This document shows positions 1,569 through 38,496 of a stretch of DNA of 41,128 bases, piece after piece. Positions within the stretch are counted from its first letter, which is position 1, and the number at the start of each line of letters is the position of its first letter. The DNA is from Acidisoma silvae (lineage in GTDB: Bacteria; Pseudomonadota; Alphaproteobacteria; Acetobacterales; Acetobacteraceae), in the NCBI RefSeq assembly GCF_020618775.1, contig NZ_JAESVB010000025.1:1-41128 (forward strand), given 5' to 3'. The position numbers and the translations under genes are program-made. The notes beneath the pieces were generated by a model that made no database searches, was not told the DNA's origin, and was given only the letters and a program-made list of their open reading frames with translations.

Positions 1569-3296
1569 TCACATTGTCCAATCGGCGCTGCCGTCGGCCA
1601 CGAATTGGCAGATGCGATCAATGAAATGCTGGCGGGCTGCATAGTCCAGCAGCGCATGGTCTGCCCGGGGGATCAACTCGACCGAGAGGTGCGGAAATTG
1701 CTCGCGGGAATATGACCGTGATCCTACAGCGCGGGAGAGTTCGGAGAGTCCAGGATCCTCTTCGCTATAGAGGAAATTGATCCGTACGCCGCGTCTTCCA
1801 AGTCCAGAGAGCCAGCGTCTCACCTGGCCAGCTCGCGTTTGAAATCCAGTTGTGCGTTCGAATAGGAGCGAGGCCCAATGATAGATGTTTAAGAAAAGTC
1901 TTCGCACGAGCGCTGCACTGATGGAGCCAACTGCAACATTGCCTCTGAGCAGACGCTCCCAGGCTTCCTTTCGCATAACCGCCTTCAAATAGAAGGTGAG
2001 GGGACGCCGCTGTTTTTTGTTCTCGACTTTCAACGGTGCGTTTTTTAGCCAAATAAATTTTTGCAGATTTGCAAGGATCAACTGATTAACGCGCGTTTCT
2101 CGTAGGCTGGCGTGGAACGCGACATGGGCGCCCGAGCATATGGCAACGAGGATAAACTGGTTGAGTCCACGAATGGCGAGAGCTTCAACAGCTGCGACCA
2201 CGTCGTCTATGAGCTCCGGCGCATAAGGATGAAGCGTATGGTTGTTTCGCGCAGCACTTTCACCAAAACCGCCCCCGTCAATGCGGAGCGAAGGGATTCC
2301 CATATTAGCTAGTCGTCTTGCCAAAGTGACGTAAACACGCCCATCGCCGGTGCGTCGACCGAAGCCGGTGTTGAGCATAATCACGGTAGGCGCCGCCGTC
2401 GCGCAATGCTGTGATGGCGAGCAAAGAACGCCGTACAGGCCGTTCTCCGGCCCGAATTGAAAACCTTCCTCTATTGCCGTCGGCAAATGTAGCGCACGGG
2501 ATGATGGAGGGAGCAAAGACATGAGCTGCCCATTCGTCCGCGGTAAGCTCTCGCACCAAGCGACGACCTTAGTGAACGTGCGATCAGGGATTGTGACAGA
2601 GAAAGCATCCTGCAGGAACGTCGCCGCTCCAGGAAAGTCTTCGTGCGTCACGCGCGCACCGAGTTTGCGCAAATGCGTGGCTAGACTGTCGATCGATGGC
2701 GTGCCGCACGCCTCCACTAACATGACGTCAGTGGCAGTCACGGCAATTGCACGCAGGTCGATCGCTGAAATTGCCTGCAACGTCTCCTCGCTTAGCCGGT
2801 CGCCGACTATATCGCGATAGCCAGCACCTGCCTGCTGTTGGGGTAGCAGGTTTGCTTCGCGCCAACCATTGGCTAGCAAATTTAATTCGCGGGCATAGCT
2901 TCTGCCTGAAACGACGGGTGCCAGACAGCAGACCGCGATGATTGAATTGTCTTGCGCGACAGCTTGGAGCGCAAGTGCCGCTCCCAGACGAACACCGATC
3001 AGCAGGATGGCCTCAACGCCAGCTGCGCGGCGCAAGAACGTCACTGCCGAAGAGACACTTAGCTGCCAGGTTTCTAAACGCGACGGGTCGGTTTCGCTTC
3101 CGGCTGAGTCACCGGTTCCGGGATAGTCGAAACGCAGTACACTGAAGCCGCGTGCGTGCAGTCGTTCAGCCAGGATCTTGCATCCGCGGTAGGTCAGCAT
3201 CGCTTCCTGCCCGAATGGCGGGCAAATCACGATGCCGGTTCCGTTCGAGCCGATGTCCAACCACCCGGCGCATCCATCGAACGTTACGGGCATCAT
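1569..3296 (-). CDS. Duplicated alpha/beta hydrolase-fold protein, altered nucleophiles
   Basis: This 575-aa protein contains two consecutive alpha/beta hydrolase-like halves. The first (about 1-250) has the oxyanion-strand sequence VICPPFGQEAM, the RFDYPGTGDSAG turn and an elbow GVRLG at 101-105, where arginine replaces the nucleophilic serine. The second (about 270-575) has VIMLNTGFGRRTGDGR, LRIDGGGFGES, an elbow AICSGA at 385-390 with cysteine at the nucleophile position, and a late RADHALL with the candidate histidine. The two elbow variants resemble those of hydrolases associated with exosortase/polysaccharide loci (GLRLGA and GICSGA types). The ATG overlaps the upstream GH2 stop by 4 bp, so translation is probably coupled and this is the last gene of the unit. 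The likely role is acyl or thioester hydrolysis or transfer by the second half, with the first half non-catalytic. The substrate is unknown. Confidence 0.8.
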   Translation of the reverse strand: MMPVTFDGCAGWLDIGSNGTGIVICPPFGQEAMLTYRGCKILAERLHARGFSVLRFDYPGTGDSAGSETDPSRLETWQLSVSSAVTFLRRAAGVEAILLIGVRLGAALALQAVAQDNSIIAVCCLAPVVSGRSYARELNLLANGWREANLLPQQQAGAGYRDIVGDRLSEETLQAISAIDLRAIAVTATDVMLVEACGTPSIDSLATHLRKLGARVTHEDFPGAATFLQDAFSVTIPDRTFTKVVAWCESLPRTNGQLMSLLPPSSRALHLPTAIEEGFQFGPENGLYGVLCSPSQHCATAAPTVIMLNTGFGRRTGDGRVYVTLARRLANMGIPSLRIDGGGFGESAARNNHTLHPYAPELIDDVVAAVEALAIRGLNQFILVAICSGAHVAFHASLRETRVNQLILANLQKFIWLKNAPLKVENKKQRRPLTFYLKAVMRKEAWERLLRGNVAVGSISAALVRRLFLNIYHWASLLFERTTGFQTRAGQVRRWLSGLGRRGVRINFLYSEEDPGLSELSRAVGSRSYSREQFPHLSVELIPRADHALLDYAARQHFIDRICQFVADGSADWTM

Positions 3297-5794
3297 GCGA
3301 GCGCGGCCGTCTTAGTTCGCGTTGCCGTGCCCGTCTCGCGGGGAGCGCGGAACGACACCGTGGTCGTGCCATTGATTGCTATCACGAGGCCGCTTGGCGG
3401 TTCGTGCCAGCCGCGCTTTTCCCGCAAACGGATGCGACGCGGTCTGGCAGGAGGCAGATGAAACCAGTCCTCGTCCGCCTGATAGCCGTCCGCGACGATA
3501 TGTACTGCCTGGGCAAACCGTGCAGCGATGATGTCAATGAACCAGCAGGAATCAATCCCGACGATGGTGGCCTGCATACCCAGATCGTCCGGCGGCAATG
3601 CGCGGCCGACCGGAAAATGAAACGCCTCTGACAGAATGTTTCCGGATTTGGCGCATCGGAGTGTGGCGATGGTGACATTGTGCTCCGGTGCGCCAAAATG
3701 ATACGCTCTGGTGATGTCGAAGAAAGAGTCGAGTATCGCTTGACTAGAAAACGAGGCAGAACTTCGTGGTTCGATTTCGACTGGCTGTTGGGCCGACACA
3801 ACGGAGACCGCGCCGCGTCTCAGACAGTCGAGTGATAGGACGGCGGAAACCGCATCGGGACTTTCATTCAAAACATGCAGAGCGATTCCGTCCATTCCCT
3901 CGTCTGACAGCAGCAGTTGGATCGGGGCCAGGACACGGCGCAAGCCGTGCCAAGCGGCTTTCTTGTGGCCATGACTGTCAATGACGCCCCAGCCGCTTCC
4001 GGACGCCAGATCTTGGAGCTGCCAGACGAGGCCGCCTGAACAGGGTGAGCCCGGCCGCCGCCATTCGGAGAAGACAGATTCCATTAAGTCCGCAGTCACG
4101 GCGCGGGACAGTTCCAGATACCGCGCGTGATCCTCCAGGCGCAGCTTCACAGGCTCATATCCATATAGGGTGCCGAGATAATGGTCGCGGATATCGGCAA
4201 AATCCCAGGAAACCCCATGATCGCGCGGAGCCTTGTCACTTTTAAGGGCGGCCGGGGACACACTGCTTGGCGGGTTGGCGAAAGCGAGGCATTCGCTGGC
4301 GAAACGCACCTTGGCACGCCGCGCGTCCTCCAGCGGTCGGCGATAGGCGCCCACGCCGTAGTAGTGCGCAACCCCCGCACTGACAGTGATCGGCAACGCC
4401 CCGCCCCATGGAGAGTGTGGTATGTAGTGCAGATCGGGGCTGAGGTGCCGGATAAGTCTGGGCAGGACCGTCTCGAAGAAAGGCATCTGGCGGCGTTCGG
4501 CGGTTAGACCAACCATCGTCGCCTGCTGCGCTATTTCCGAGCCGCCACATAGGACGACAAAAGACGGGCTGCCTCCGAGACGGCTCAGTAATTGTTCGAC
4601 TTCCGCGATCACTTGCTGGCGCAAAGGCTCGCTATCAAGCGGATAATCGAGATTGGCGAACATTAAATCTTGCCAGACCATAATTCCAAGTTCATCACAA
4701 AGATCGTGGAAGGCTTGGCTTTCGTAGAGCATGGTGCCGCCGACGCGAACCATGTTCATGCCAGAATCCCGCAGGGCGATAAGCCAAGGTGCGTAGGCCT
4801 CGCGGTCGCCGGCAAGGCCGAGCAAATCCGCGCTGGTCCAGCAGGCGCCACGGCAGAAAACGGAAACACCGTTCATTTCCAAAGCGAAGTCGGTCTCGTC
4901 TTCCCCACGCCTGATCGTGGCTTCACGAAAACCAACTTGGCCAAGTGCGAGTTCAGTAGTGCCGTCGCTCAAGGAGACCATATGCAAAATCGCCTCGCCG
5001 TGCGTGTGCGGCCACCAGCGCGCGACGTCGGGCAGTGTTACCTCCGCCGCAATGCTACCGTCTCGAACATCCTCCAAAGCAAAAACGACTGTACCGACAC
5101 TTAGGGTGAGCGCGCGAAACCGGGCTGCCGACCCACTAAATGTGAGATTGACTGACAAAATCCCGTCATTGCCTCGCATATGGGTTGCAAACCGCCATGA
5201 CTGCAGGATTCCAGGGCGATCGACAAGTTCGACTGGACGGAACGGGCCGATGGCATGGAAGGAAGGGCACCAGCCGGGCATATGGCCAAGCAAGGTCTGT
5301 CTGTAGAGGCGCAAGGCATTCGTCGTCACCAGCCGCGTGCGCCAACGGGGTCGCTCCGAGGTGGCCGCCATCGCGGCAAAAAGGGACCGGAAGCAGATCG
5401 ACAGCCGCACCGTCCCGCCGGTCGCGAGATCAATGGCCAGGGGGAGGAACATGCTCGTCGAAACGGCGACGCACTCGCCATCGATCCAGACCTCGGCAAG
5501 CCCTGCAAGTCCCAGGAAGCGTAGCTTCTGGCCTGGGCAGGCTTCGAAGGCTGTCTCATACCAGACATCGTCTTCATGGAGAGGCATCGGCGTGACCGCC
5601 GTCCACGCGGCAGACCCCTGCAGAGCCTGGAGCGCCGTCCCCGGAACCCTGGCGTCTAGCCACAGCGTGTCGGCTGAAAGTGCGGCAGGGTCTGGGGCAG
5701 CGCCGCGAGCCGTGCGCGTGGCCCGCCATGATGCCTTTAAAGGTTGGGCAATGCCAAGCGCCACCGTATCGGACAATATAGCTGGGTTCGTCAT
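3293..5794 (-). CDS. Glycoside hydrolase family 2, beta-mannosidase-like
   Basis: The protein has 833 aa, a usual length for GH2 beta-mannosidases. The N-terminal sugar-binding jelly roll is recognisable (VPGTALQAL, DDVWYETAFE, FLGLAGLAEVWIDG), followed by an Ig-like domain and a TIM barrel (GACWTSADL, GMNMVRVGG, DELGIMVWQDLMFAN). The candidate acid/base is E420 in CGGSEI and the candidate nucleophile is E501 in ASECLAF. Both glutamates are present, although the context around the first (CGGSE instead of the usual GNNE) is unusual. There is no signal peptide, so it probably acts in the cytoplasm. It sits 40 bp after the DUF1839 gene and overlaps the alpha/beta hydrolase gene. Its place in an amino acid:carrier-protein unit suggests it modifies a glycosylated intermediate rather than serving in catabolism (inference). 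A related specificity cannot be excluded. Confidence 0.85.
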   Translation of the reverse strand: MTNPAILSDTVALGIAQPLKASWRATRTARGAAPDPAALSADTLWLDARVPGTALQALQGSAAWTAVTPMPLHEDDVWYETAFEACPGQKLRFLGLAGLAEVWIDGECVAVSTSMFLPLAIDLATGGTVRLSICFRSLFAAMAATSERPRWRTRLVTTNALRLYRQTLLGHMPGWCPSFHAIGPFRPVELVDRPGILQSWRFATHMRGNDGILSVNLTFSGSAARFRALTLSVGTVVFALEDVRDGSIAAEVTLPDVARWWPHTHGEAILHMVSLSDGTTELALGQVGFREATIRRGEDETDFALEMNGVSVFCRGACWTSADLLGLAGDREAYAPWLIALRDSGMNMVRVGGTMLYESQAFHDLCDELGIMVWQDLMFANLDYPLDSEPLRQQVIAEVEQLLSRLGGSPSFVVLCGGSEIAQQATMVGLTAERRQMPFFETVLPRLIRHLSPDLHYIPHSPWGGALPITVSAGVAHYYGVGAYRRPLEDARRAKVRFASECLAFANPPSSVSPAALKSDKAPRDHGVSWDFADIRDHYLGTLYGYEPVKLRLEDHARYLELSRAVTADLMESVFSEWRRPGSPCSGGLVWQLQDLASGSGWGVIDSHGHKKAAWHGLRRVLAPIQLLLSDEGMDGIALHVLNESPDAVSAVLSLDCLRRGAVSVVSAQQPVEIEPRSSASFSSQAILDSFFDITRAYHFGAPEHNVTIATLRCAKSGNILSEAFHFPVGRALPPDDLGMQATIVGIDSCWFIDIIAARFAQAVHIVADGYQADEDWFHLPPARPRRIRLREKRGWHEPPSGLVIAINGTTTVSFRAPRETGTATRTKTAALA

Positions 5795-5834
5795 GGGTCG
5801 CTCGGCAGGTCAGCTTTGTGCCAGTGATGGCAGC

Positions 5835-6812
5835 TCATGATGTGAACCACCTGAGATCCTGCACAATCTCGGCATATGCGGCCTCGAGCGTGTCAAAGCA
5901 TTCCAGGCAAAGATCTGGATAATTGCGTGCTATGCTACGGGCAAGACGAAATTGAAGGATTTTTGTAGTGTGTGCGATCCTGGCGCAAGCCTTTTGCACG
6001 CTCAGGAGTTGGTCTGGCGCGAGCCAAGCCGCGTGACTGCCGAACAGCTCGAAATTTGCCCCAATGGCGCGCGGGAAATGAAACGCATAATCGTGAAATG
6101 TTTCTGGTCTAGCGCTCAGCCTTGCAAGATCATTTGGAAATGCATCGCGCCAGGCGGAAAAGGGGCTGATCGTTGGCCGGTCGGATAGGTGTCTCCGCAG
6201 TAGATCGACCGCTGTCGCATGCAAAGCAGCCGGGTCGAGCGGCGCTGCGCCTCGCTTGACGATTTCAACATAGGGAGAAAGGAGGTCGGGCTGTTCAGAG
6301 AATTCCGGCCGCAGACGAAACGCACCATAATAATCTTCATCCTGGAGCACGCTGCGTGCAGCATTATGGAAGTATTCGCTTCGCTTCGTAGCAAGATCGA
6401 TGTAGTCGACTGCGATCGTTGTTTTGACATGCTGGCGTCGATAGGTCGTGGTCAGAGTGTCGGGCAGATAGAAGGCGTCGACTTCCAAGAGCACCACTCG
6501 GCCTCTTCCGACATGCTGGGCGATGTGCTGATCCAAAGTATGGTAGATCGATATTTCCTGCACGGTCAGCCCGTACAAGCGGCGCAGATCCTCGGATGGA
6601 ATTTTACAGAATGTAAACTGGTCACCCTCATATGCCTGTGCAATGCCAAAACCGAACGCAGCTTCGGGAATTTCGCCAAGCTTGGCGAGAACCTCAATCC
6701 ACAAATCAGTATAGCAGTTTGTTTCGGGCCAAGATTGCCCGCCGCCGTGGAGGGCGTGCGGCGTAAACCGGGCCGTTTGCCTCGGCTCGGTATGCAGACT
6801 CAGTTCGGCCAC
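5835..6812 (-). CDS. DUF1839 family protein
   Basis: The protein is about 325 aa and of unknown function. It carries the blocks I associate with DUF1839: HALHGGGQSWPETNCYTDLW, AYEGDQFTFCKIPSEDLRRL, RGRVVLLEVDAFYLPDT, HVKTTIAVDYID and EYFHNAARSVL. The conserved H, C, D and E residues give it the look of an enzyme, and the HG...ETNCY block is cysteine-protease- or transglutaminase-like in flavour (inference). The frame is open upstream to an ATG at 6908, but that would overlap the ligase gene by more than 100 bp. The GTG at 6812 overlaps the ligase stop by only 13 bp and still contains every family block, so I chose it. In other alphaproteobacteria DUF1839 genes are known to sit next to amino acid:[carrier protein] ligases, as here. 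Confidence 0.82.
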   Translation of the reverse strand: MAELSLHTEPRQTARFTPHALHGGGQSWPETNCYTDLWIEVLAKLGEIPEAAFGFGIAQAYEGDQFTFCKIPSEDLRRLYGLTVQEISIYHTLDQHIAQHVGRGRVVLLEVDAFYLPDTLTTTYRRQHVKTTIAVDYIDLATKRSEYFHNAARSVLQDEDYYGAFRLRPEFSEQPDLLSPYVEIVKRGAAPLDPAALHATAVDLLRRHLSDRPTISPFSAWRDAFPNDLARLSARPETFHDYAFHFPRAIGANFELFGSHAAWLAPDQLLSVQKACARIAHTTKILQFRLARSIARNYPDLCLECFDTLEAAYAEIVQDLRWFTS

Positions 6813-7711
6813 AGTGCCGCCCGGACATGCGCCGGCCACCCTGCACGATTGAGGCCGTGATGGCGAAACAAGGCCAGCGCCAGTCGTTCGAATCCGAAGC
6901 CGACGCATGCCGTATGAGCAAGACGACCGTCCTGCATTTTAAGATCCCAGATGCTGCTGAAATGGTCTATGTGATAATTAAAACTGAGGCATGCGGTTGG
7001 CGTTTCTGCGCTATTGACAGGCACCAACAGTTCAAATTTCAGCGCCTGGTCACGTTGGCTGTCGGCCATAATTTTACCGCCACGACCAAAAAAAGGATCG
7101 TTAGCAAGGTCGACGGCTACCGGCAACCCGAGCGCGCTGACAATTGCATGCCCACGTTCCACCCATCGGTCGCGAAATGCCTTGGTAATTTCGGGAGTCG
7201 CAATACACACAAATTCGCGCATACGAAACATCTGCATGCGCGTTGGTTCGAGAGATGGCTCATGGCGGAAGCAATACGAAGACACGTCGATGATATGGCC
7301 ATCCATCTTGACCGGACCGCGAGACGCAATCATTGGATAGACCGGATAACAGGCTGCCGGCGTCAGGGCTAGGTCAACGGATTTCTGTTGCCCTGTCCAG
7401 TCTTCTTTATCATCGAGGCACTGCAATAGCTTCTTATGAGCTTGGTCGTCACCGCAGAAGCAATGCACCGTGCCAGCGAGATGCGGAAACCCCTTGAGAT
7501 ATCCGCTCGTTTCTATGACTGATCGCGGCATAGCAGGCGGAAAGCGCACCACCTCCGCTCCCGGCATAGCGCCGTCACGGGAGATCAGCCCGTCTATTCC
7601 ATCGACCACAGCTTCAAAGTCACCGCTGCGGCCGTAAATGCCGTCGACGCCGCTCGCGACCAGCAGACCAGCTTCAAAAAGAGTATCGCGAAACGAGACC
7701 TTCTCTAGCAT
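6800..7711 (-). CDS. Amino acid:[carrier protein] ligase, class II aaRS-like
   Basis: This 303-aa protein is a stand-alone class II aminoacyl-tRNA synthetase-like catalytic domain with no tRNA-binding domain. It is related to atypical SerRS and to the Bradyrhizobium aa:CP ligases, which activate glycine or alanine with ATP and load them on the phosphopantetheine of a carrier protein. Motif 2 is FRHEPSLEPTRMQMFRMREF (148-167) and motif 3 is GFGFERLAL (271-279). The three zinc ligands expected for this family can be placed at C121, E166 and C269, each shifted by exactly ten from the positions I recall for the Bradyrhizobium enzyme (131, 176, 279). The gene starts 3 bp after the acyl-CoA dehydrogenase-like gene ends, and the cognate carrier protein opens the operon. 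I am confident of the family; the amino acid loaded cannot be read from sequence. Confidence 0.9.
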   Translation of the reverse strand: MLEKVSFRDTLFEAGLLVASGVDGIYGRSGDFEAVVDGIDGLISRDGAMPGAEVVRFPPAMPRSVIETSGYLKGFPHLAGTVHCFCGDDQAHKKLLQCLDDKEDWTGQQKSVDLALTPAACYPVYPMIASRGPVKMDGHIIDVSSYCFRHEPSLEPTRMQMFRMREFVCIATPEITKAFRDRWVERGHAIVSALGLPVAVDLANDPFFGRGGKIMADSQRDQALKFELLVPVNSAETPTACLSFNYHIDHFSSIWDLKMQDGRLAHTACVGFGFERLALALFRHHGLNRAGWPAHVRAALWPN

Positions 7712-7714
7712 GTT

Positions 7715-8878
7715 CTATTCCTTCATCAAGGACGCGCGCTGAGCAACAAGCAGCGCTGCAGTATTAGCCGCGATTCGGTCGTTGTTGACCATCAGCGGCG
7801 CAGAATGAAGATCGCGCATATGGCGGCCGAGACTAAAAGGCGTTCCATATTTGTAGCCCGCGATGCCACAAATAAGCATCGCATGATGTACTGCCGCAAG
7901 AGCCGCCTCAGACATCGCAATTTTTAGCCCGTTGACCTCGGCCAGAAAACCTAGCGGCAATGCCTCGCGATCGCTGATCTGAATATTAAGATATTCGTTA
8001 ACTGCGCTATCCAATCGCGCGCGCATCGAGGACAGCATTGACACCGCTTTCTCCAGGCGAACCGCACCGGGTGGTAGTGCATCCGCGTTGTGGTGCGCCT
8101 CATTGCGAAGAAATGCGCGCGCTTTCTCTGTGGCGTCCGTCGCAATACCAAGCCATACCGAGCCCCACAGAATATGGGATGTGGGAAGCATCGTGTGCTG
8201 TGCAATATCATCGAACGGGACAGAAATAATCTGTGCGGCATTGGCAGAAAAGGAAATATCGAACCCTTTGCTGTCCGTACCACGCATACCCAGTGCATTC
8301 CAACGGCTGGTTTCGACCAGCGCGCTGTCGGTTCGTTCAGCCACAATGAGAATTTGATCTGACGACGGCGCCTCGTTGCTGCGTCGGGCCGTTACAAGAA
8401 ACGCATCTGCGTGCTCGCCATATGAGATCGCGGGGGACCGCTTGCGCAACGTAAGCCGATTCCCCTCGTATTCAGGCGCGCAGAGGCTGGAACGAATATT
8501 TCCACCTGTCCCCACTTCAGAGGTAACCGACGCCAGCAACAATTGATCGGCGTTAGCGCGTCTCAGGAACGCCTCTTGCCATGCGGCGCCACGCGCTGTT
8601 GCAACCAGGCAGGCGACCTGAATTTGATGCATGGCATAGATCAAAGCGCTCGACCCGCAGGCTTGCCCTAGGATGCGGCACACCAATGCCACATCCCTTA
8701 GGGTCGCACCGGGTCCCCCGAAGCGTTCCGGAATGAGAAGACCGAGAAGGCGATTTTGTTTTAGTCCCTCAAGAGATTCGTGAGGAAAGCATGACTCAAT
8801 GTCAACGCTGTCGGCATGGGCAGCTGCGATGATGGCTGCCGTTCTCGCGCGATCGATCAGCGTGCCGAAGTCTTTCAA
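7715..8878 (-). CDS. Acyl-CoA dehydrogenase-like flavoprotein
   Basis: The protein has 387 aa with the three-domain acyl-CoA dehydrogenase layout. The N-terminal helical part includes GLLIPERFGGPGATLRDV. The central beta domain has ASVTSEVGTGGNIRSS and a GMRGTDSKGFDISF block. The C-terminal helical domain ends with LHSAPLMVNNDRIAANTAAL. In classical dehydrogenases the last block carries the catalytic glutamate (YEGT-like); here that region reads MVNNDRI, with no glutamate. It may therefore work on something other than an acyl-CoA alpha,beta bond, for example an aminoacyl group held on the carrier protein, or act as a flavin-dependent oxidase or oxygenase (inference). Its start overlaps the carrier-protein stop (ATGA), implying translational coupling and supporting a carrier-bound substrate. 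Confidence 0.88.
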   Translation of the reverse strand: MKDFGTLIDRARTAAIIAAAHADSVDIESCFPHESLEGLKQNRLLGLLIPERFGGPGATLRDVALVCRILGQACGSSALIYAMHQIQVACLVATARGAAWQEAFLRRANADQLLLASVTSEVGTGGNIRSSLCAPEYEGNRLTLRKRSPAISYGEHADAFLVTARRSNEAPSSDQILIVAERTDSALVETSRWNALGMRGTDSKGFDISFSANAAQIISVPFDDIAQHTMLPTSHILWGSVWLGIATDATEKARAFLRNEAHHNADALPPGAVRLEKAVSMLSSMRARLDSAVNEYLNIQISDREALPLGFLAEVNGLKIAMSEAALAAVHHAMLICGIAGYKYGTPFSLGRHMRDLHSAPLMVNNDRIAANTAALLVAQRASLMKE

Positions 8879-9192
8879 AACGTCAAAGCTCCCGACTTCA
8901 GGCTAGCAATGACTGCCGCAAGAGAGGAAATGCTCTCAAAGGACCTGCGGGTGAGAAGATGGTCAAGAAACTCTACAGAGAACACCTCTTCGATAGCGAG
9001 CATCACGTTGACGGTCGCCAGTGAACTCAACCCGGCATCATATAGGTTATCCTCATCGTTGAGAGCTTCGACTGGCACGCTCAAGCGAGCGCAACGGGAA
9101 AGGATTTCACGGATACGATCTTCCATAGCGGTTTCCACAAGTTTGTTTATGTTCGGAGAGGTAATAGGACGCTGATCAGTCAAGTTAGTCAT
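8875..9192 (-). CDS. Acyl/aminoacyl carrier protein
   Basis: This small four-helix carrier protein has the phosphopantetheine attachment motif DAGLSSLATV, with S57 as the modified serine when numbered from the ATG at 9192. The first 22 residues are not typical of the family. An in-frame ATG at 9125 would start at MEDRIREILS, where family members usually begin, giving an 83-aa protein; neither start has a strong ribosome binding site. It is the first gene of the minus-strand unit and overlaps the flavoprotein gene by 4 bp. The adjacent aaRS-like ligase suggests it carries an amino acid thioester rather than a fatty acyl chain, and its V-N-V-M-L-A-I-E helix fits carrier proteins of such loci. 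A holo-ACP synthase is not encoded nearby. Confidence 0.9.
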   Translation of the reverse strand: MTNLTDQRPITSPNINKLVETAMEDRIREILSRCARLSVPVEALNDEDNLYDAGLSSLATVNVMLAIEEVFSVEFLDHLLTRRSFESISSLAAVIASLKSGALTF

Positions 9193-21777: not shown

Positions 21778-23052
21778 TTAGCCGGTCCTTGGGTAATCGT
21801 TCCGAGTGGGCCGAGATATTTTACGTCTTTTGTCAGGCGCAGACGGCAAGCAAGCAGCCGGACGCACCTGATTGAAGATGGCCTCAAAGCGAGCCGCAAT
21901 CTCGCTGATGACAAAATGTCGTTCTGCATAATCACGCCCAGACCGCCCGAGCCTTTGGCTAAAGGAGCTATCTTCGTAGAGGCGCCGGGCTTGTGTGACG
22001 AACCCAAGCCGGTCGAGCGGAGGCACAGAAATTCCGCCTTCGCTTTCGGCCAATATCGAGACGGAAAGGTTGCTGGATGGCGCCGACAGCAATATCGGGC
22101 GACCAGCACAGAGATAGTTTAAAAGTTTAGACGGTACGGCAAACTCTCCTGCATCCTCTTCCAGAAGAGCGACGAGCACATCGGCTGTTGCCAGCGTATC
22201 GGCTAGTTCGACTGCAGGCTGCAGCGGTAGTAGCCGCAAATTAGCCCTTGGGGCCGATTCCTGCTCCTTAGCCAGGCGTTGGGCGTTAACACCGGCTGCC
22301 ACGACGACGATTTCGACATCCGGATCGTCAGCGAATGCATCGGACAGTGCGAGGAGTAGAGCAGGGTCATGCTTAAGGGCTAGAGTTCCCGTGTACATGA
22401 AGACGAATTTTTCACCCAAGCCGATCTTTCGACGCCAAGCATTGTCACGATCGCCAGGGCGGATGAGGTCCACAGATCCCCAGTTGCGCATGATATGAAC
22501 GGCATCTCTGGCCGCAAGGCCGGAAGGCAGATGGAGTGCAAAGGCCGGACTAATCAATATGATTGCATCGCTTTTTTTTAATGTATCAATCTCAACTTTG
22601 CGATACCATTTAGAGATCATATCGCCCGCGCCCATCCAACGTCGAGCGAGAAGCTTTTGCATGGCCAATCCATAAAAATCCTGTACCCAGAAAACGAATG
22701 TGCCGCCATGCCTATGTGTAGCGGCTCGCAATGCGCGTTGAACATCAAGAGGTGAATTGCCAGAAACAACAATGTCTGGTGCAAACTTAGCGATCCGCCT
22801 TGCCGCGTGAACGGCGTAAATCTGGTCGGCGGCAAATCTGCGAAGCATTCGATCTTTCGTATAGCCCAAAGGAATATGTATCGCCTCGATAGAAAAACCA
22901 GAAGGATCATCGAATCGCAGATTTCTATCTCCTTTTGGTCCGGGATCATCTCCAAAATAGAAATGCCTCACTTCGTGTCCCAGACGCGCAAGCGCTCGTG
23001 ACAGGTCGAACTGAAATGGGTGACCAGCGTAATCATGAATGGCAACACGCAT
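21778..23052 (-). CDS. Family 4 glycosyltransferase, WbuB-like
   Basis: The protein has 424 aa and two Rossmann-like halves. The N-terminal half has HPFQFDLSRALARLGHEV and APDIVVSGNSPLDVQ. The C-terminal half has KFVFMYTGTLALKHDPALLL, DVLVALLEEDAGEFAVPSK and LLNYLCAGRPILLSAP. The acidic residues before PSK..YL.AGRP are the donor-binding motif of GT4 enzymes, and the overall layout is like fucosamine or N-acetylfucosamine transferases of the WbuB group. It is cytoplasmic or membrane-associated and should add one sugar to a lipid-linked repeat unit. AAGG lies 12 bp before the ATG. It is divergent from the epimerase gene, with 382 bp between them. Confidence 0.88.
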   Translation of the reverse strand: MRVAIHDYAGHPFQFDLSRALARLGHEVRHFYFGDDPGPKGDRNLRFDDPSGFSIEAIHIPLGYTKDRMLRRFAADQIYAVHAARRIAKFAPDIVVSGNSPLDVQRALRAATHRHGGTFVFWVQDFYGLAMQKLLARRWMGAGDMISKWYRKVEIDTLKKSDAIILISPAFALHLPSGLAARDAVHIMRNWGSVDLIRPGDRDNAWRRKIGLGEKFVFMYTGTLALKHDPALLLALSDAFADDPDVEIVVVAAGVNAQRLAKEQESAPRANLRLLPLQPAVELADTLATADVLVALLEEDAGEFAVPSKLLNYLCAGRPILLSAPSSNLSVSILAESEGGISVPPLDRLGFVTQARRLYEDSSFSQRLGRSGRDYAERHFVISEIAARFEAIFNQVRPAACLPSAPDKRRKISRPTRNDYPRTG

Positions 23053-23434
23053 AATGATATACCTTGTGATTTGCGGGATTGCTCTGCTCTGCCGTTTTCA
23101 ACACGCGAGTCTAAATCTAATCAGAAATCGTCTAGCTCTATATGGCTACTCGTCAAATCGAAAGGAAGATTGTTACGATCCCTGGGTTTGAGGCTGGACA
23201 GGTCACAGCTCATTGTCAATAGAGACAACATTTATCGAAAGTGTAGCATTTGAAACTAGAAAGTTCGAATTAGGTCTGAAGAAATTTAACTTGATCGGGA
23301 TGTCGTGAGATGTCCTGCAAACCACATTCGTAGATTTTTGTTGTGTTTTCATCGTTTCAAGCTGACCAAGAAAGTGTTCCTAGGCGAATGCTCGGCCAAG
23401 CACTCAGCGCGAGACCAATCTGGAGAATGAGCGA
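23053..23434. promoter_or_regulatory. Divergent control region between the two arms of the polysaccharide locus
   Basis: This gap separates the minus-strand glycosyltransferase from the plus-strand epimerase, so it must hold promoters in both directions. It is AT-rich. At 23213-23228 lies TTGTC, six bases, then GACAA, a short symmetric site that recalls the longer TTGTCAGG inverted pair at 16681-16707. No consensus -35/-10 pair stands out. A GGAG at 23422-23425 is the ribosome binding site of the epimerase. Confidence 0.45.
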
Positions 23435-24424
23435 ATGACTAAGTCTGTCCTCGTATGTGGCGCAGGTGGGTTCATCGGCGGCCACTTGGTCCGGCGCTTG
23501 ATGGAAGAAGGTTGCTGGGTTCGTGGTGTCGATAATAAGCGCCACGAATATTCATCGGCTCATCCGACCGAGTTCATGCTGGGTGATCTCTGTGACCAGC
23601 AGTTCGTGGCAAAGGTCGTCGACCGTGACTACGACGAGGTGTACCAGCTCGCAGCCGATATGGGTGGCGCCGGCTATATCTTCTCAGGCGAGAATGATGC
23701 CGCGATCATGCAGAACTCGGCCACCATCAATCTCAATATGCTGAATGCCTGTCATCGCAGAAGCATCGGGCGTATTTTCTATTCATCCTCTGCCTGCATC
23801 TATCCGGCACATAACCAAACTGACCCGGACAATCCCAATTGCGCCGAGGACTCGGCCTATCCTGCCGCTCCCGACAGCGAATACGGATGGGAAAAGCTTT
23901 TCAGTGAGCGCCTCCACATGGCTTACCGCCACAACTATGGAATGGATGTTCACGTTGCACGATATCACAACATCTTTGGGCCAGAAGGCACTTGGGCGGG
24001 TGGACGCGAGAAGGCGCCTGCAGCGATCTGCCGGAAGATAGCTATGGCATCGGATGGTGACGCGATCGAGGTTTGGGGTGATGGCTGTCAGACACGATCC
24101 TTCCTCTATGTCGATGAATGTGTTGAAGGAACATTGCGGCTGATGCGTTCCGATATCCGAGGACCGCTCAATATTGGTTCGGAGGAAATGGTCACGATCA
24201 ACCAGATGGTCGATCTTGTCGCAGACATTGCAGGCAAAAAAATCATCAAACGTCATATTGCTGGACCGCTTGGCGTGCGCGGCCGCAATTCCGACAACCG
24301 GCTCATACAGGAACAGCTGAACTGGGCACCAAGCGAGTCCCTTCGCGCTGGCCTGGAAAAGACCTATGCCTGGATTGCCCTGCAGGTTGAACAGTCGATG
24401 GCGCAGGTTGCAAAAGTGGCGTGA
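23435..24424 (+). CDS. GDP-mannose 3,5-epimerase
   Basis: The enzyme is an extended short-chain dehydrogenase of 329 aa. The NAD site is GAGGFIGG (9-16), followed by ADMGGAGYIF, SSSACIYPAHNQ, GPEGTWAGGREKAPAA, GDGCQTRSFLYVDECVEG and GVRGRNSDN. Every catalytic residue known from the plant enzyme is found at a constant offset of 24: C121 (145), Y150 (174), K154 (178), K193 (217) and R282 (306). It should convert GDP-D-mannose to GDP-L-galactose, with GDP-L-gulose as a side product. In this locus the product is presumably a sugar donor for the polymer, not a precursor of vitamin C. A good ribosome binding site (TGGAGAA) precedes the ATG. It is the first gene of the plus arm. Confidence 0.93.
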   Translation: MTKSVLVCGAGGFIGGHLVRRLMEEGCWVRGVDNKRHEYSSAHPTEFMLGDLCDQQFVAKVVDRDYDEVYQLAADMGGAGYIFSGENDAAIMQNSATINLNMLNACHRRSIGRIFYSSSACIYPAHNQTDPDNPNCAEDSAYPAAPDSEYGWEKLFSERLHMAYRHNYGMDVHVARYHNIFGPEGTWAGGREKAPAAICRKIAMASDGDAIEVWGDGCQTRSFLYVDECVEGTLRLMRSDIRGPLNIGSEEMVTINQMVDLVADIAGKKIIKRHIAGPLGVRGRNSDNRLIQEQLNWAPSESLRAGLEKTYAWIALQVEQSMAQVAKVA

Positions 24425-24526
24425 ATCACGGCGTTATCTAATGAGATTGACGAGAAGTTTTTGACAGTTCTTCCTGCGGACAGCGTCCAGCAGGTCGGTT
24501 GACGCCGAGCAACTAAGGACAGACGG

Positions 24527-26665
24527 ATGGACCTGCGTACCATTCTTGAGATTGTTTTGCCGCGTAAACTGTCCATTTTATTTGGCGGTCTGTTATTTGC
24601 CATTTTCGCTTTTTTTCTCTCAGGAATGGCTCCGGTTCGCTACACCAGCACTGGTTACTTGATGTTTGATGCGCCCAAGGATCAGACAGCTGCGACTATG
24701 ACGCGGATTACGGATATCGACGTTCTGCTTTCGCCGACCTTGTTGACGGAAGTGGCGTCACTACCGGCAATCTACCAGCGCCCTGATCTTGTGCCATCCC
24801 TGAGGCTGCCTTCGTTTCGGGACATGGAACTCCCCAAAACCCTATTCGGTTACGCCATTCCGACCTGGCACAAAGCTGCGCATCCGACGAAGCAGCAGAA
24901 GGGGGCTTTGACGGACCATATTAATGGAATTGCAGCTTATTTGCACAGCAGCTTAAAAGTGACGGGAGACCCTGACAGCCGGGTTATTGCGATCGCCTTC
25001 TCCGCTGGCAATGCGAGTTTGGCGGCAACGGTCGTCAATGAGCTCATGGCTCGCTACATTGCCACAGATTATGAAGCGAGGCTTGCAACCGTTGTTGCCC
25101 CGAATGCTTGGCTCACCGCTCAGGTGACAGCCGCGGCAAAGGATGCAGCCGCAGCAGATGGAGCGATTGCTGCCTTTCAGCGCACGCATAATGTATCGTC
25201 GTCGTCGCAGGGATCCTATGCCGATATCAACCTTAGTAGGCAATGGGACCTTCTGTCGGCTGCCAAGCAGCAGCTTTCGGACGCTGAACTCTCGCAAAGC
25301 CTCGTCAAATCTGGATTTGATGATGCTTCAGCATCGTCTCCCCAAATCCAGATATTGCGTGAGCGACAGATCCAAATGTCACAGCAATTGGCCGCCGCGC
25401 AGGCATCATTGGGCCCGGCCAATCTTGGCCAACAGGAAATTCAAAATCAGCTAAACGCGATTCGCCGCCAGATGGCAGCGGCCAGTGGTAAGGCAGCTGG
25501 CTCTGTGGGCGAGCGGGTGGCGGTAGCCCAAGCGCGTGTCGACGCGCTACAGGGTCAGGTCGATCAAGCCGCTGCCGCGGCGGCGGTCGCATCAGAAAAC
25601 GAATTTGATCTGCATCAGCTTATGGCATCAGCGCAAAGCAAGCACAGCGTCTACGACAACCTGCTTGGGCGTTTACATGACTCCGAGCTCAGTGCGACGC
25701 AACTCACCCACGCACAAATCGTGTCGCAGGCGACCATTCCATCCCTTCCAGAATCCGCGCGCACGGTGCTCTACGTCATCCTCGGTTTTGTCGTCGGCTG
25801 TCTGCTCACCGTCAGTGTCCTTGTTCAACGGCATTTCTTCAACGCTCGGATTGGCTCGGTGAGTATCCTTTCCAGTTTCCTGCGTGTGCCCAATCTTGGC
25901 AGCCTTCCTATCATCGGTTCGCGGCGCGGCACGCTAGGCAGATTGGCGCTCGACCATCCTCACGGGGCGATCGCGGAGACCCTGCGCGGCATTCGGCTGC
26001 GGCTTCAGGAATACGCTCAAGGAACCGCTGGCGTAGTGGTGCTTGTCACCTCCGCAGAACGGGGTGAGGGGAAGACGAGTGTAGCTGCGGCTCTTGCTTT
26101 GCGCGCAGCAGGAGACGGTCTAAGCGTATTGTTGATCGAAGGTGACTTACACCGGCCGTCTCTCTCGGAAGATTTCAAGATGGCCAATGGTGGTCGCGGG
26201 CTTGAAGCAGCTGTCTCCGGCAAGCTGCAACGTGAGAAAGTTCTTGAGATCCACAGAGAGACCGGCCTGCATTGCCTTTTCGCGCGAGCGTCAGTGCCGA
26301 ATGCCGTCGCCTTCCTTGACAGCCATGGCTTTCGCAGACTCGTAGAGGAGGGACGATCAATCTATGACCTTGTCGTGATCGACGGGCCGCCGCTTCTCCG
26401 CGTGCCGGATCCGTTGGTGTTGTCCCGACTGGTGGATCGCATTATCTGGGTTATGCGGGCAGAACGCACCCCGCAGCGGGTCATTGCGGAAGCGCTGAAG
26501 CGTCTGCCGGCTGATCGTCGCGCCCTCGTTGCGACTGTCATCACTGGTGCGCCAAAACGAATGCTGACAGGTTTGGGCTTTTATGCAGGCTATAGCGGCC
26601 GGGGCCATTTTCCTGTCATCATGCATGAGCCTGCGGCGACTTGGCCTGAGGTTGACGAACGGTGA
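24527..26665 (+). CDS. Polysaccharide co-polymerase with tyrosine autokinase domain (Wzc-like)
   Basis: The inner-membrane protein has 712 aa. A first helix (LSILFGGLLFAIFAFFLSG) is followed by a Wzz-type periplasmic part with long alanine- and glutamine-rich coiled-coil stretches (about 200-400), a second helix (TVLYVILGFVVGCLLTVSVL) and a cytoplasmic BY-kinase domain. The kinase has Walker A SAERGEGKTSVAAA near residue 511, Walker A' VLLIEGDLHRPSL near 537 and Walker B YDLVVIDGPP near 615. In the A' motif the first acidic residue is Glu rather than Asp. The C-terminal tyrosine cluster is meagre (FYAGYSG), fewer than in enterobacterial Wzc. It should control chain length and export together with a Wza-type porin, which is not encoded here. 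AAGGA lies upstream of the ATG. Confidence 0.9.
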   Translation: MDLRTILEIVLPRKLSILFGGLLFAIFAFFLSGMAPVRYTSTGYLMFDAPKDQTAATMTRITDIDVLLSPTLLTEVASLPAIYQRPDLVPSLRLPSFRDMELPKTLFGYAIPTWHKAAHPTKQQKGALTDHINGIAAYLHSSLKVTGDPDSRVIAIAFSAGNASLAATVVNELMARYIATDYEARLATVVAPNAWLTAQVTAAAKDAAAADGAIAAFQRTHNVSSSSQGSYADINLSRQWDLLSAAKQQLSDAELSQSLVKSGFDDASASSPQIQILRERQIQMSQQLAAAQASLGPANLGQQEIQNQLNAIRRQMAAASGKAAGSVGERVAVAQARVDALQGQVDQAAAAAAVASENEFDLHQLMASAQSKHSVYDNLLGRLHDSELSATQLTHAQIVSQATIPSLPESARTVLYVILGFVVGCLLTVSVLVQRHFFNARIGSVSILSSFLRVPNLGSLPIIGSRRGTLGRLALDHPHGAIAETLRGIRLRLQEYAQGTAGVVVLVTSAERGEGKTSVAAALALRAAGDGLSVLLIEGDLHRPSLSEDFKMANGGRGLEAAVSGKLQREKVLEIHRETGLHCLFARASVPNAVAFLDSHGFRRLVEEGRSIYDLVVIDGPPLLRVPDPLVLSRLVDRIIWVMRAERTPQRVIAEALKRLPADRRALVATVITGAPKRMLTGLGFYAGYSGRGHFPVIMHEPAATWPEVDER

Positions 26666-26701
26666 CCGCGGCGAGACAGATCAAACGCGCGGCGGTTTGT
26701 C

Positions 26702-27889
26702 ATGCACCTGCGACCGCAAATCGGGTCGCCGCTGATGGACGGTGAACAAATAGAGTTTGGCAAAACGGTGTCCCTGAAGCCGACCCTCGGATCGGCGCGC
26801 GATCAGTCGTATATTTATGGTCTGGATTTTCTGCGCTTCTTGGCAGCTTCGCTCGTCGCGCTTTTTCACCTGACCTGGCTTGAGCCAACCACCGCTAAGC
26901 TCGCTTGGTTTGGGTGGATTGGGGTCCAGATCTTCTTCGTCATTTCGGGCTTCGTCATCTCACAATCGGCCCAGACGTCAAGTGTGTTAGCCTTCGCGAT
27001 CTCGCGCTTTCTTCGCCTCTACCCTGCGGCCTGGATATGTGCCCTCATTAGCTTGGTGGCTCTTCTTTGCAGAGGCAATATGATGGCTGCAGCACCATCA
27101 TTGCTGCTGCAATTTTTCCGCTCGCTCGTCCTTTATCCGACAGGCCCGTTCCTCGCCACGGCCTATTGGACATTGCCGGTTGAAATCACGTTCTATGGGC
27201 TAATCGCAATTGTGCTCTACAGACATGCGTTCCGCCATATCGAAGCCATCGCGCTCGTGATGGCCATTTTTAGCGGACTATATCTCGCTTTCCTGGGCCT
27301 ATATTATCTCGGTGCGGTCAATACATCCTGGATCGCGTTCGGCTATGGCTGGAAGAACGTGACGCTGTTGAGACACGGTGTCTATTTTTCAGGCGGCATC
27401 TTCTGCTGGCTCACATCAGAAAAAAAATTGACGTGGCAAGGTATCATAGGTCTAGCGATTGTCGCTATTGCAGCACCTATTGAAATAATCTGCCGCACGG
27501 CAGAACTTGTGCCATTGATGCCGGTTTCAATGAAACTTTCTTCGGTCAGTTGGGTGCCGCTCGTCATTTGGATCGCCGCGGTCGTATTTATTCTGGCGGC
27601 TGCGCGTTGGCGTGCCGAGGTGAATGCACTCCCGAGTTCGGTTTTGCGTGCCATCCGACTTCTGGGCCTGACGACCTATCCCTTTTATCTTGTCCACGAA
27701 GTGGTGGGGCACGCGGCACGTCACGTATTCCTGGCGCGAGGAGGCTCTACTTTGATCAGTGCGGTTGGTGGTGTGCTGGTCTCAGCGTTCGTCGCCTTCT
27801 TGATCGCTTATCAGGCCGAGCCCAGGCTGCGCCGCTTGCTGCGGGCGTGGATAAAGTCGCTTGAGCAAGGCAGGAAGCGCTTGGCTTGA
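26702..27889 (+). CDS. Acyltransferase 3 family membrane protein
   Basis: The protein has 395 aa and about ten helices. The N-terminal signature YGLDFLRFLAASLVALFHLT contains the conserved Arg and His of the acyltransferase 3 family, which O-acetylates or O-succinylates surface polysaccharides. The block FGWIGVQIFFVISGFVISQS and the segment RFLRLYPAAWICALISL are also typical. The family's catalytic His is in FHLT. It begins 36 bp after the Wzc-like gene. The ATG at 26702 and a second one at 26735 are both possible, since neither has a strong ribosome binding site. It probably decorates the repeat unit of the polymer with an acyl group. Confidence 0.92.
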   Translation: MHLRPQIGSPLMDGEQIEFGKTVSLKPTLGSARDQSYIYGLDFLRFLAASLVALFHLTWLEPTTAKLAWFGWIGVQIFFVISGFVISQSAQTSSVLAFAISRFLRLYPAAWICALISLVALLCRGNMMAAAPSLLLQFFRSLVLYPTGPFLATAYWTLPVEITFYGLIAIVLYRHAFRHIEAIALVMAIFSGLYLAFLGLYYLGAVNTSWIAFGYGWKNVTLLRHGVYFSGGIFCWLTSEKKLTWQGIIGLAIVAIAAPIEIICRTAELVPLMPVSMKLSSVSWVPLVIWIAAVVFILAAARWRAEVNALPSSVLRAIRLLGLTTYPFYLVHEVVGHAARHVFLARGGSTLISAVGGVLVSAFVAFLIAYQAEPRLRRLLRAWIKSLEQGRKRLA

Positions 27890-27932
27890 CCTAGCCTATT
27901 TAAAATTAGCGGTGAAATAGAAGGCAGTATAA

Positions 27933-32552: not shown

Positions 32553-32613
32553 GGTTGCTGGACATTCAGATATGACGTGCCGCGTTTTTTAAGTGGAGGT
32601 TGGAGCGATAACT

Positions 32614-33273: not shown

Positions 33274-33294
33274 CCGCTTCCGGGCGGGGCTATT

Positions 33295-34347: not shown

Positions 34348-34626
34348 CTTGAGTTCCTTCCGACCAGCCACAAGGAGGTTCGGCGGCTAAGCTGCAATCA
34401 GGCAGATAAAGCGTCTATAGTTCCTTTGCGCGCCTGGCGCTTCCCAGAAGGGCTATGCCTGAACTGGCAGCAAAGGCTAGAAAATTGGGAAATTGTCGCC
34501 CTCAGAACTAAGCACAATGGCGGAATATTATTTCCATCTGTCATCGACTAAAAATTAGGAGACAGAGGATCAGGAAATTAAATATTTCCTCTCCGACAGC
34601 TTGCCACTCCATCTTTACGGCGGTGA

Positions 34627-36090: not shown

Positions 36091-36102
36091 AGGGTAGCGG
36101 AC

Positions 36103-36987: not shown

Positions 36988-37032
36988 GCACCCCGCCAAT
37001 GAGCACCGCCTATCGTAAGGAGCCAGCCAGCG

Positions 37033-38319: not shown

Positions 38320-38496
38320 TTTCAATCGCCAAGGTTCGCGATCGCGTAGTGCAAAGTGGCTAGAGACAAATTATCAGGCGCAAGGCAAGTTTTGGAAACC
38401 TTGTCCAGGAATAGGGCGTTCTGGCGTCCACAACGAATAAGCCGCGGGCACAGACGACTGTCCTTTGCTAGCGAAAATGTCTGAAAGTATTCAAAA

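What the first reader, a model, noticed from the sequence alone, without database searches (positions are those of the whole stretch)
1569..9192. Six-gene amino acid:carrier-protein pathway that includes a GH2 enzyme and a double hydrolase
Carrier protein, aaRS-like amino acid:CP ligase, acyl-CoA dehydrogenase-like flavoprotein and DUF1839 are linked by overlaps of a few bases, and a GH2 beta-mannosidase-like protein and a duplicated alpha/beta hydrolase-fold protein complete the unit. Aminoacylation of carrier proteins by such ligases is known biochemically, but the final product is not established to my knowledge. The gene content suggests loading of glycine or alanine, oxidation on the carrier, and transfer to or release from a glycoside.
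Basis: partly seen in the sequence, partly recalled or inferred. Interest (0 to 1): 0.75.

Follow-up and report, generated by a model that had tools for sequence, protein, structure and literature searches.

The report
Polysaccharide-linked amino-acid transfer gene unit
Six neighbouring bacterial genes that recur together in many proteobacteria appear to load a small amino acid onto a carrier protein, alter it and pass it to a sugar-containing acceptor, often beside genes for slime or biofilm polysaccharide; the end product is still unknown.

Summary
The six-gene unit is real and conserved. Of 68 full-length ligase loci (from the best 80 scan hits), 66 keep carrier protein, flavoprotein, ligase, DUF1839 and GH2 together; 42 of these 66 also have the double hydrolase within about 10 kb. 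In more even samples the full six are rarer, and smaller sets occur.

The only confident PDB matches of the DUF1839 model are AziU2/U3, CcbD and CtaG; CcbD joins a carrier-bound amino acid to an amino sugar, so DUF1839 is probably the transferase. And exopolysaccharide markers lie nearby in 45 of 68 loci against 2 of 40 control windows, though in 0 of 6 Azospirillum loci. In Burkholderia the unit apparently belongs to the Bep/bec biofilm locus, where a mutant in becG (by gene order probably this flavoprotein) is mildly biofilm-impaired (PMC5507470).

The flavoprotein lacks both usual catalytic glutamates; GH2 keeps both; the hydrolase has a dead N half and a Cys-nucleophile C half. Best reading: amino-acid-type decoration of a surface glycan, or a glycoside made with it. 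Substrate, acceptor and product are not shown.

The parts
8875..9192 (-). Aminoacyl carrier protein; Ser57 in GLSS is the expected phosphopantetheine site
   Evidence: PRK07081 E 2e-29; PP-binding; similar to Atu2571 2jq4 and the carrier chain of 4h2w; Ser57 in 84 of 84 aligned
7715..8878 (-). Acyl-CoA-dehydrogenase-fold flavoprotein without the canonical Glu bases
   Evidence: Pfam Acyl-CoA_dh_N; AF2 pLDDT 92.9; Foldseek to dehydrogenases and to DszC/TdsC/KijD3; position 364 is Ile/Val and 235 is His in 83 of 83
6800..7711 (-). Amino acid--[carrier protein] ligase, class-II aaRS-like
   Evidence: PRK07080 E 2e-146; 4h2w/3mey Bll0957 E 5e-91 and 3e-88; C121, R149, E166, C269, R276 in 87 of 87
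5835..6812 (-). DUF1839, papain-fold; proposed carrier-protein-dependent acyl/aminoacyl transferase
   Evidence: PF08893 E 2.7e-106; AF2 pLDDT 92.3; Foldseek E<1e-3 only to AziU2/U3, CcbD, CtaG; C33 in 79 and H149 in 83 of 83 sequences
3293..5794 (-). GH2 beta-mannosidase-like protein with both expected catalytic Glu; no signal peptide seen by eye
   Evidence: PF22666; 5n6u E 6e-37; E420 and E501 in 73 of 73
1569..3296 (-). Double alpha/beta hydrolase: N half hydr2-like without a usual nucleophile, C half hydr1-like with Cys387
   Evidence: TIGR03101 and TIGR03100 halves, below cut-off; residue 103 is Arg 26 / Gly 24, Cys387 50 of 50, His547 49 of 50
21778..39624 (.). Exopolysaccharide-type genes in the same window (WcaI-like glycosyltransferase, sugar epimerase, chain-length/tyrosine kinase, WcaF-like acetyltransferase and others); context, not part of the unit
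   Evidence: NCBIfam and Pfam hits; several ORFs in the stretch had no hit

Best explanation
A carrier-protein-based amino-acid tailoring and transfer module that serves a surface polysaccharide. (1) The aaRS-like ligase activates a small amino acid and loads it on the carrier protein; shown biochemically for the family (recalled), inferred here from identity and intact residues. (2) The ACAD-fold flavoprotein changes the carrier-bound acyl group, probably at the alpha carbon or nitrogen and not by ordinary alpha,beta-dehydrogenation; inferred. (3) DUF1839 takes the acyl group onto Cys33 and passes it to an amine, as CcbD does from carrier-bound proline to an amino sugar; inferred from the structure match. 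(4) GH2, a retaining-glycosidase fold with both Glu, trims or transfers the sugar part of that conjugate; inferred. (5) The Cys-type C half of the double hydrolase makes a second acyl transfer, or clears wrong acyl groups, close to polysaccharide export; inferred. Some reduced relatives have only carrier, ligase and hydrolase, so loading plus hydrolase may be an older core with ACAD, DUF1839 and GH2 added; this last point is speculation, the tree root being unsure.
For: 66 of 68 loci keep CP-ACAD-LIG-DUF1839-GH2 and 42 of them also the hydrolase. DUF1839 found in 4 of 289 class genomes, all 4 with an over-cut-off ligase. DUF1839 model matches only AziU2/U3, CcbD and CtaG at E<1e-3; CcbD uses carrier-bound proline plus an amino sugar by a Cys-His-Glu ping-pong (PMC12945683 passages). 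EPS markers in 45 of 68 loci against 2 of 40 control windows. Hydrolase joined to a Polysacc_synt_3 flippase domain in Rhizobium L058. Sphingomonas L078 has a flippase, CP-ACAD-LIG-HYD and a Bac_transf sugar transferase. L167 of the window's family has a DltB-like MBOAT (below the DltB cut-off), CP-LIG-HYD and an Acyl_transf_3 protein. In B. pseudomallei the becG mutant (annotated acyl-CoA dehydrogenase) has biofilm OD 0.84 against 1.25 and smooth colonies (PMC5507470 passages).
Against: No substrate, acceptor or product is shown. Bep of B. cenocepacia was solved as Gal-Glc-Gal-Man without amino sugar (PMC7084887 passages), so an amide-linked aminoacyl group there lacks an acceptor; alkaline extraction would have removed esters, so that result does not decide. 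Azospirillum (0 of 6 loci) and 11 of 25 genus-level groups show none of the EPS markers, and 23 of 68 loci have none. The hydrolase is absent within about 10 kb in 25 of 68 loci, and two that count as present are weak hits at locus ends (L089, L093). becG is the mildest of the seven bec mutants tabulated (the others 0.43-0.66). Foldseek TM-scores for DUF1839 are only 0.50-0.60. Foldseek cannot tell dehydrogenase from oxygenase for ACAD.
Confidence: 0.42

Rival explanations
1. The unit makes a free small molecule, such as an aminoacylated glycoside or signal, that is co-regulated with but not part of the polysaccharide.
For: It stands outside EPS-marker neighbourhoods in Azospirillum, 0 of 6, and beside unrelated genes on an A. 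brasilense replicon. CcbD, one of DUF1839's nearest folds, serves a small-molecule pathway; CtaG and AziU2/U3 likewise, by recall. Bep has no amino sugar.
Against: EPS markers in 14 of 25 genus-level groups and the hydrolase-flippase joining in Rhizobium L058. I recognised no dedicated exporter among the scanned recurrent neighbours, although an ABC-type family occurs in 16 loci and many recurrent families were not scanned.
Confidence: 0.3
2. A Dlt-like O-aminoacylation system: aminoacyl groups leave the carrier through membrane acyltransferases or the Cys-type hydrolase and are esterified to the polysaccharide; DUF1839 and GH2 have a side role.
For: Minimal CP-LIG-HYD versions with Acyl_transf_3 (L167, L168) and a DltB-like MBOAT (L167). 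Esters would have escaped detection in alkali-extracted Bep.
Against: The MBOAT and these Acyl_transf_3 proteins have no homologue at E<1e-5 in any of the 68 full-length loci by single-sequence search. It leaves the near-constant DUF1839-GH2 pair unexplained.
Confidence: 0.15
3. A turnover or proofreading unit: GH2 and the hydrolase break down stalled glycan intermediates and the carrier branch is a separate pathway in the same operon.
For: GH2 keeps both expected catalytic Glu and looks cytosolic by eye.
Against: DUF1839 and GH2 are both present (66) or both absent (2) in the 68 full-length loci; one class genome, L016, has DUF1839 without GH2.
Confidence: 0.08
4. Chance neighbours.
For: Reduced sets exist: L016, L018, L020, L021, L045/L164, L078, L105, L165-L171.
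Against: 66 of 68, across alpha- and betaproteobacteria, with short overlaps in the window.
Confidence: 0.01

Closest known systems
Bradyrhizobium amino acid:[carrier protein] ligase Bll0957 and its carrier (PDB 4h2w, 3mey)
   Same: Ligase aligned over residues 17-300 of 303 and carrier homologous; PRK07080 cut-off passed
   Different: The solved work stops at loading; the transferase, GH2 and hydrolase are not part of it as far as I recall. Distant ligase loci L020 and L021 sit beside Cys_Met_Meta_PP and HTS enzymes instead
Lincosamide condensation (CcbD/LmbD with carrier domains) and butirosin BtrH, closthioamide CtaG
   Same: Amino acid held on a carrier and moved by a papain-fold Cys enzyme to an amine (CcbD; CtaG and BtrH chemistry partly recalled); DUF1839 model matches CcbD and CtaG
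   Different: 11-15% identity; no sequence-profile match in PDB; loading here is by an aaRS-like ligase; setting is often an EPS locus. BtrH itself was not compared; its role is from PMC10318531 passages
Exosortase-A (XrtA) EPS clusters, hydrolases 1 and 2
   Same: Hydrolase halves match TIGR03101 and TIGR03100; carrier and ligase beside EPS genes (XrtA gene content recalled)
   Different: Both matches are below the curated cut-offs; halves fused; an exosortase was not specifically sought
Burkholderia Bep/bec biofilm polysaccharide loci
   Same: In 11 Burkholderia/Paraburkholderia loci the unit lies between a Crp-type and a VpsR/sigma-54-type regulator, as berA and berB lie at BCAM1349 and BCAM1342
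   Different: That the six genes between them are this unit is inferred from gene order; 0 papers in the library name BCAM1343-1348
Dlt D-alanylation of teichoic acids
   Same: Amino acid, carrier, polymer (recalled); DltB-like MBOAT beside CP-LIG-HYD in one relative, L167
   Different: Different ligase fold (recalled for DltA); no homologue of that MBOAT in the 68 loci

Membership tests
Amino acid--[carrier protein] ligase (PRK07080) | Score above curated family cut-off | tested here: met
   487 bits against 357
Amino acid--[carrier protein] ligase (PRK07080) | Metal-binding and motif residues (C121, E166, C269; R149, R276; roles recalled) | tested here: met
   87 of 87 aligned
Amino acid--[carrier protein] ligase (PRK07080) | Loads amino acid on partner carrier | not testable with these tools
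   Needs an in vitro assay
Carrier-protein-dependent papain-fold amide synthase (CcbD/CtaG type) | Fold | tested here: met
   Foldseek 19 matches at E 4e-8 to 4e-4, all AziU2/U3, CcbD or CtaG, TM 0.50-0.60; next is phytochelatin synthase at E 0.085
Carrier-protein-dependent papain-fold amide synthase (CcbD/CtaG type) | Nucleophilic Cys and His | tested here: met
   C33 79 of 83, H149 83 of 83; the 4 without C33 have Cys at 132. Assignment of H149 as the catalytic His is by conservation and spacing only
Carrier-protein-dependent papain-fold amide synthase (CcbD/CtaG type) | Detectable sequence homology | tested here: not met
   Profile of 37 DUF1839 sequences finds no PDB chain at E<=1
Carrier-protein-dependent papain-fold amide synthase (CcbD/CtaG type) | Acyl transfer from carrier to amine | not testable with these tools
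   Needs an in vitro assay
Canonical acyl-CoA dehydrogenase | Catalytic Glu at the MCAD-376 or IVD-254 place (positions recalled) | tested here: not met
   Ile/Val364 and His235 in 83 of 83, register
ACAD-fold flavin monooxygenase | Closer to DszC/KijD3 than to dehydrogenases | tested here: inconclusive
   Both groups at like E-values
GH2 retaining glycosidase | Acid/base and nucleophile Glu | tested here: met
   E420 and E501 73 of 73; E501 aligned to SEFG of 5n6u; E420 read by me from CGGSE, with a gap in that alignment
Exosortase A hydrolase 1 / hydrolase 2 | Curated cut-off | tested here: not met
   104 against 168 and 90 against 203 bits
Dlt system | MBOAT exporter beside the carrier | tested here: not met
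   No homologue of the L167 MBOAT in 68 loci; the L167 protein itself is below the DltB cut-off, 186 against 375 bits

The most novel reading that the evidence does not exclude
An undescribed Gram-negative pathway in which an aaRS-derived ligase feeds a carrier protein, a flavoprotein reshapes the bound amino acid, and a CcbD-like enzyme plus a GH2 protein attach it to a glycan precursor, giving biofilm exopolysaccharides amino-acid-derived groups that standard alkaline analysis would partly miss.
Probability: 0.3. Interest if true: 0.8.

Novelty: new variant of a known kind. Interest (0 to 1): 0.6.

Why it matters
Carrier-protein aminoacylation by aaRS-like ligases has been known since about 2010 without, to my knowledge, a product (recalled). 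Naming a likely transferase and a frequent setting turns that into a testable question, gives DUF1839 a proposed chemistry, and predicts a substituent on some biofilm polysaccharides of rhizobia, Methylobacterium and Burkholderia that a structure taken in alkali may not show.

Tried and rejected
Chance neighbourhood: rejected. Ordinary acyl-CoA dehydrogenase chemistry for ACAD: disfavoured. A firm dehydrogenase/oxygenase call: not possible. EpmA and KamA-like genes beside the unit in Rhizobiaceae: taken as local chromosomal context because they recur there and not in the other groups' rows. MBOAT and Acyl_transf_3 as general partners: no homologue in 68 loci. Ligase tree: the DUF1839+GH2 state needs 9 changes, fewer than in shuffles (mean 16.8) but not one origin; long branches make the root and the window's place unsure. 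Literature: PMC searches on DUF1839 (1 paper), the ligase and carrier, CcbD/CtaG/BtrH and bec and Bep genes gave, in the listings and passages I saw, no description of the six-gene unit as such; one search listed 15 of 23 papers and only the top of very long lists. The bec paper (PMC5507470) includes what I infer to be these genes within a polysaccharide cluster. The library lacks most subscription papers, including the ligase originals, which I cite from recall only. Of the papers cited (PMC10318531, PMC9684580, PMC5507470, PMC5552954, PMC7084887, PMC12945683, and PMC3584217, in which the locus names sought were not found) I saw abstracts or passages, none whole.
Full report
What is there. 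The six genes lie on the minus strand from 9192 to 1569 in the order CP, ACAD, ligase, DUF1839, GH2, double hydrolase. The genome has one ligase over the family cut-off and one DUF1839. The host is probably in Acetobacteraceae: genome G351, placed in the window's family, holds a ligase identical to that of an Acidisphaera MAG (L164 and L045); inference.

Identity of the parts. CP matches PRK07081 and the solved carriers 2jq4 and 4h2w_C. The ligase matches PRK07080 at 487 bits against a cut-off of 357 and Bll0957 structures at E 5e-91; C121, R149, E151, E166, C269 and R276 are the same in 87 of 87 sequences, the window plus one from each of 86 loci. The roles of these residues are recalled from work on Bll0957. 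The CP Ser57 is present in 84 of 84, the window plus 83 of 86 loci with a CP hit.

Flavoprotein. The fold model is confident (pLDDT 92.9). Alignments to solved dehydrogenases put residue 364 next to the residue aligned with Tyr of the IYEGT motif, that is at its catalytic Glu, and residue 235 at the other known base position (motif and positions recalled). They are Ile/Val and His in 83 of 83. Foldseek ranks dehydrogenases together with DszC/TdsC and KijD3 oxygenases. So it is an ACAD-fold flavoprotein of unsettled chemistry; if the amino acid is glycine, alpha,beta-dehydrogenation is impossible anyway.

DUF1839. [quoted passage not shown] Here the model (pLDDT 92.3, pTM 0.89) has 19 PDB matches at E<1e-3, all AziU2/U3, CcbD or CtaG, with query TM-scores of 0.50-0.60, rmsd above 5 A and 11-15% identity; the next, phytochelatin synthase, is at E 0.085. 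A sequence profile finds none of them. CcbD joins carrier-bound proline to an amino sugar through a Cys-His-Glu ping-pong (PMC12945683, passages); that CtaG also works on carrier-bound acyl groups is recalled, and the role of AziU2/U3 was not checked. Across 83 sequences (the window plus 82 copies) C33 is present in 79 and H149 in 83. The four without C33 are the in-operon copies of Cupriavidus and Ralstonia (L033, L048, L066, L088); all four have Arg at 33 and Cys at 132, and each locus has a second copy with C33. That paired change argues that residues 33 and 132 share one active site. In the count only the best copy per locus was used, so these four had been dropped there.

GH2 and hydrolase. 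GH2 keeps E420 and E501 in 73 of 73 aligned (window plus 72 of 76 hits; 4 under 70% of the length dropped) and shows no signal peptide by eye. The hydrolase is a fusion of hydr2-like and hydr1-like halves, both under the curated cut-offs. The N half has Arg 26 or Gly 24 at the nucleophile place; the C half has Cys387 in 50 of 50 and His547 in 49 of 50 (window plus 49 of 51 hits). In Rhizobium L058 the hydrolase is joined to a Polysacc_synt_3 flippase domain; ORFs of about 1100 residues are seen in other Rhizobium loci but only L058 was scanned.

Conservation. The scan kept the best 80 of 498 confirmed places, so it favours close relatives. Of the 80, 68 are at least 20 kb: 42 have CP, ACAD, DUF1839, GH2 and hydrolase within about 10 kb of the ligase, 24 have all but the hydrolase, L078 has CP, ACAD and hydrolase, L105 has CP only. 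The hydrolase hits of L089 and L093 are weak and at locus ends, and the GH2 of L071 and L096 is in two pieces. The 12 shorter loci were left out of this count; one of them, L045, has about 10 kb after the ligase with no DUF1839, GH2 or hydrolase hit, a row against the rule. Among the 42 loci with both GH2 and hydrolase, 18 have the hydrolase next to GH2 on the same strand and 11 next to it on the other strand. In an even draw of 289 class genomes, 7 have an over-cut-off ligase: all six genes in 3 (window, L017, and L019 with the hydrolase turned round), four in L016, CP-LIG-HYD in L018, CP-ACAD-LIG in L020 and ACAD-LIG in L021. DUF1839 occurs in 4 of the 289, all with the ligase. In 150 genomes of the family, 9 have the ligase over cut-off, the window's own included. 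Of 9 loci taken from the other eight, L163 has all six, L165 CP-ACAD-LIG-HYD, L166 ACAD-LIG beside Wzc and WcaJ on a short contig, L167 and L168 CP-LIG-HYD; L164 (cut upstream), L169, L170 and L171 show the ligase alone by these queries.

Polysaccharide setting. The window itself has a WcaI-like glycosyltransferase, a GDP-fucose-synthase-like epimerase, a chain-length/tyrosine-kinase protein and a WcaF-like acetyltransferase from 21.8 kb on, some 12 kb beyond the unit. Of the 68 loci, 45 have at least one of WcaJ, Wzc, ManC or Wzx markers within about 10 kb, against 2 of 40 evenly spaced 20-kb windows of genomes G283 (0 of 20) and G131 (2 of 20). Caveats: the markers were picked because they recurred in these loci, four of the five queries came from test loci, the control covers two genomes, and 23 of 68 loci have none. 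By genus-level label it is 14 of 25, with Azospirillum 0 of 6 and Methylobacterium 5 of 9. As a second yardstick, Bac_transf genes number 19 in seven genomes of about 31 Mb, while the WcaJ marker is in 21 of 68 loci of about 21 kb.

Burkholderia link. In 11 Burkholderia or Paraburkholderia loci the unit lies between a Crp-type and a VpsR/sigma-54-type regulator, in most with ManC and WcaJ nearby. Published berB is BCAM1342, a sigma-54 regulator, and berA is BCAM1349, a CRP/FNR regulator (PMC9684580, passages), which leaves six genes between; becE, G and L of B. pseudomallei are annotated cyclic-nucleotide-binding, acyl-CoA dehydrogenase and sigma-54 regulator (PMC5507470, passages). I infer from gene order that becF-K and BCAM1343-1348 are this unit; I did not fetch those genomes, and in B. 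cenocepacia L070 no hydrolase hit was found, so the fit there is incomplete. The same paper instead names becD as the gene most like BCAM1349 (74.9%), which does not fit my reading of becE as the berA counterpart and is left open. The becG mutant has biofilm OD 0.84 against 1.25 and smooth colonies, the mildest of the seven bec mutants in the table; polar effects were not excluded in what I read. No paper in the library names BCAM1343-1348. Bep was solved as a Gal-Glc-Gal-Man repeat after extraction in 0.3 M NaOH and NMR in NaOD (PMC7084887, passages), conditions that would remove esters.

Judgement. Shown: six conserved genes, their families, their residues, and a frequent setting. Inferred with fair confidence: loading of the carrier (about 0.85) and DUF1839 as carrier-dependent transferase (about 0.7). 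Inferred with less: service to a surface polysaccharide (about 0.5), roles of GH2 and hydrolase (about 0.3 each), flavoprotein chemistry (open). The kind of logic is known from lincosamide and butirosin (recalled) pathways; the combination and setting were not found described in the searches listed, so I call it a new variant of a known kind.

Noticed in passing
L033, L048, L066, L088 (in-operon DUF1839 at about 10900-11890, or 10044-11030 in L088): Cupriavidus/Ralstonia carry two DUF1839 genes; the in-operon copy has Arg at 33 and Cys at 132 in 4 of 4, as if the catalytic Cys had moved.
   Followed up: partly
L058:14455-17796; long ORFs in other Rhizobium loci: Double hydrolase joined to a Wzx-type flippase domain in one long protein (only L058 scanned).
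   Followed up: partly
L020:9528-17313 and L021:7197-11689: Distant ligase-ACAD pairs sit beside a Cys_Met_Meta_PP enzyme and an HTS-family protein, hinting at a different pathway using the same loading pair.
   Followed up: partly
L167:4553-15479: DltB-like MBOAT, GDSL/FkbH protein, CP-LIG-HYD, Acyl_transf_3 and a glycosyltransferase in a row: possibly a Dlt-like polymer acylation system.
   Followed up: partly
window 14078-14770: Transposase-like ORF, by eye of the IS30 type, upstream of the unit.
   Followed up: no
window 27933-32552: 1539-residue repetitive protein with an SGNH-hydrolase-like stretch and RTX-like repeats by eye, inside the polysaccharide locus.
   Followed up: no
window 15454-16302 and 40375-41109: Two LuxR-type regulators at either side of the polysaccharide genes (the second by Pfam GerE; the first by eye).
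   Followed up: no
Rhizobiaceae loci such as L046, L057, L098: EpmA and a lysine-2,3-aminomutase-like gene lie just upstream of the unit; taken as chromosomal context.
   Followed up: partly
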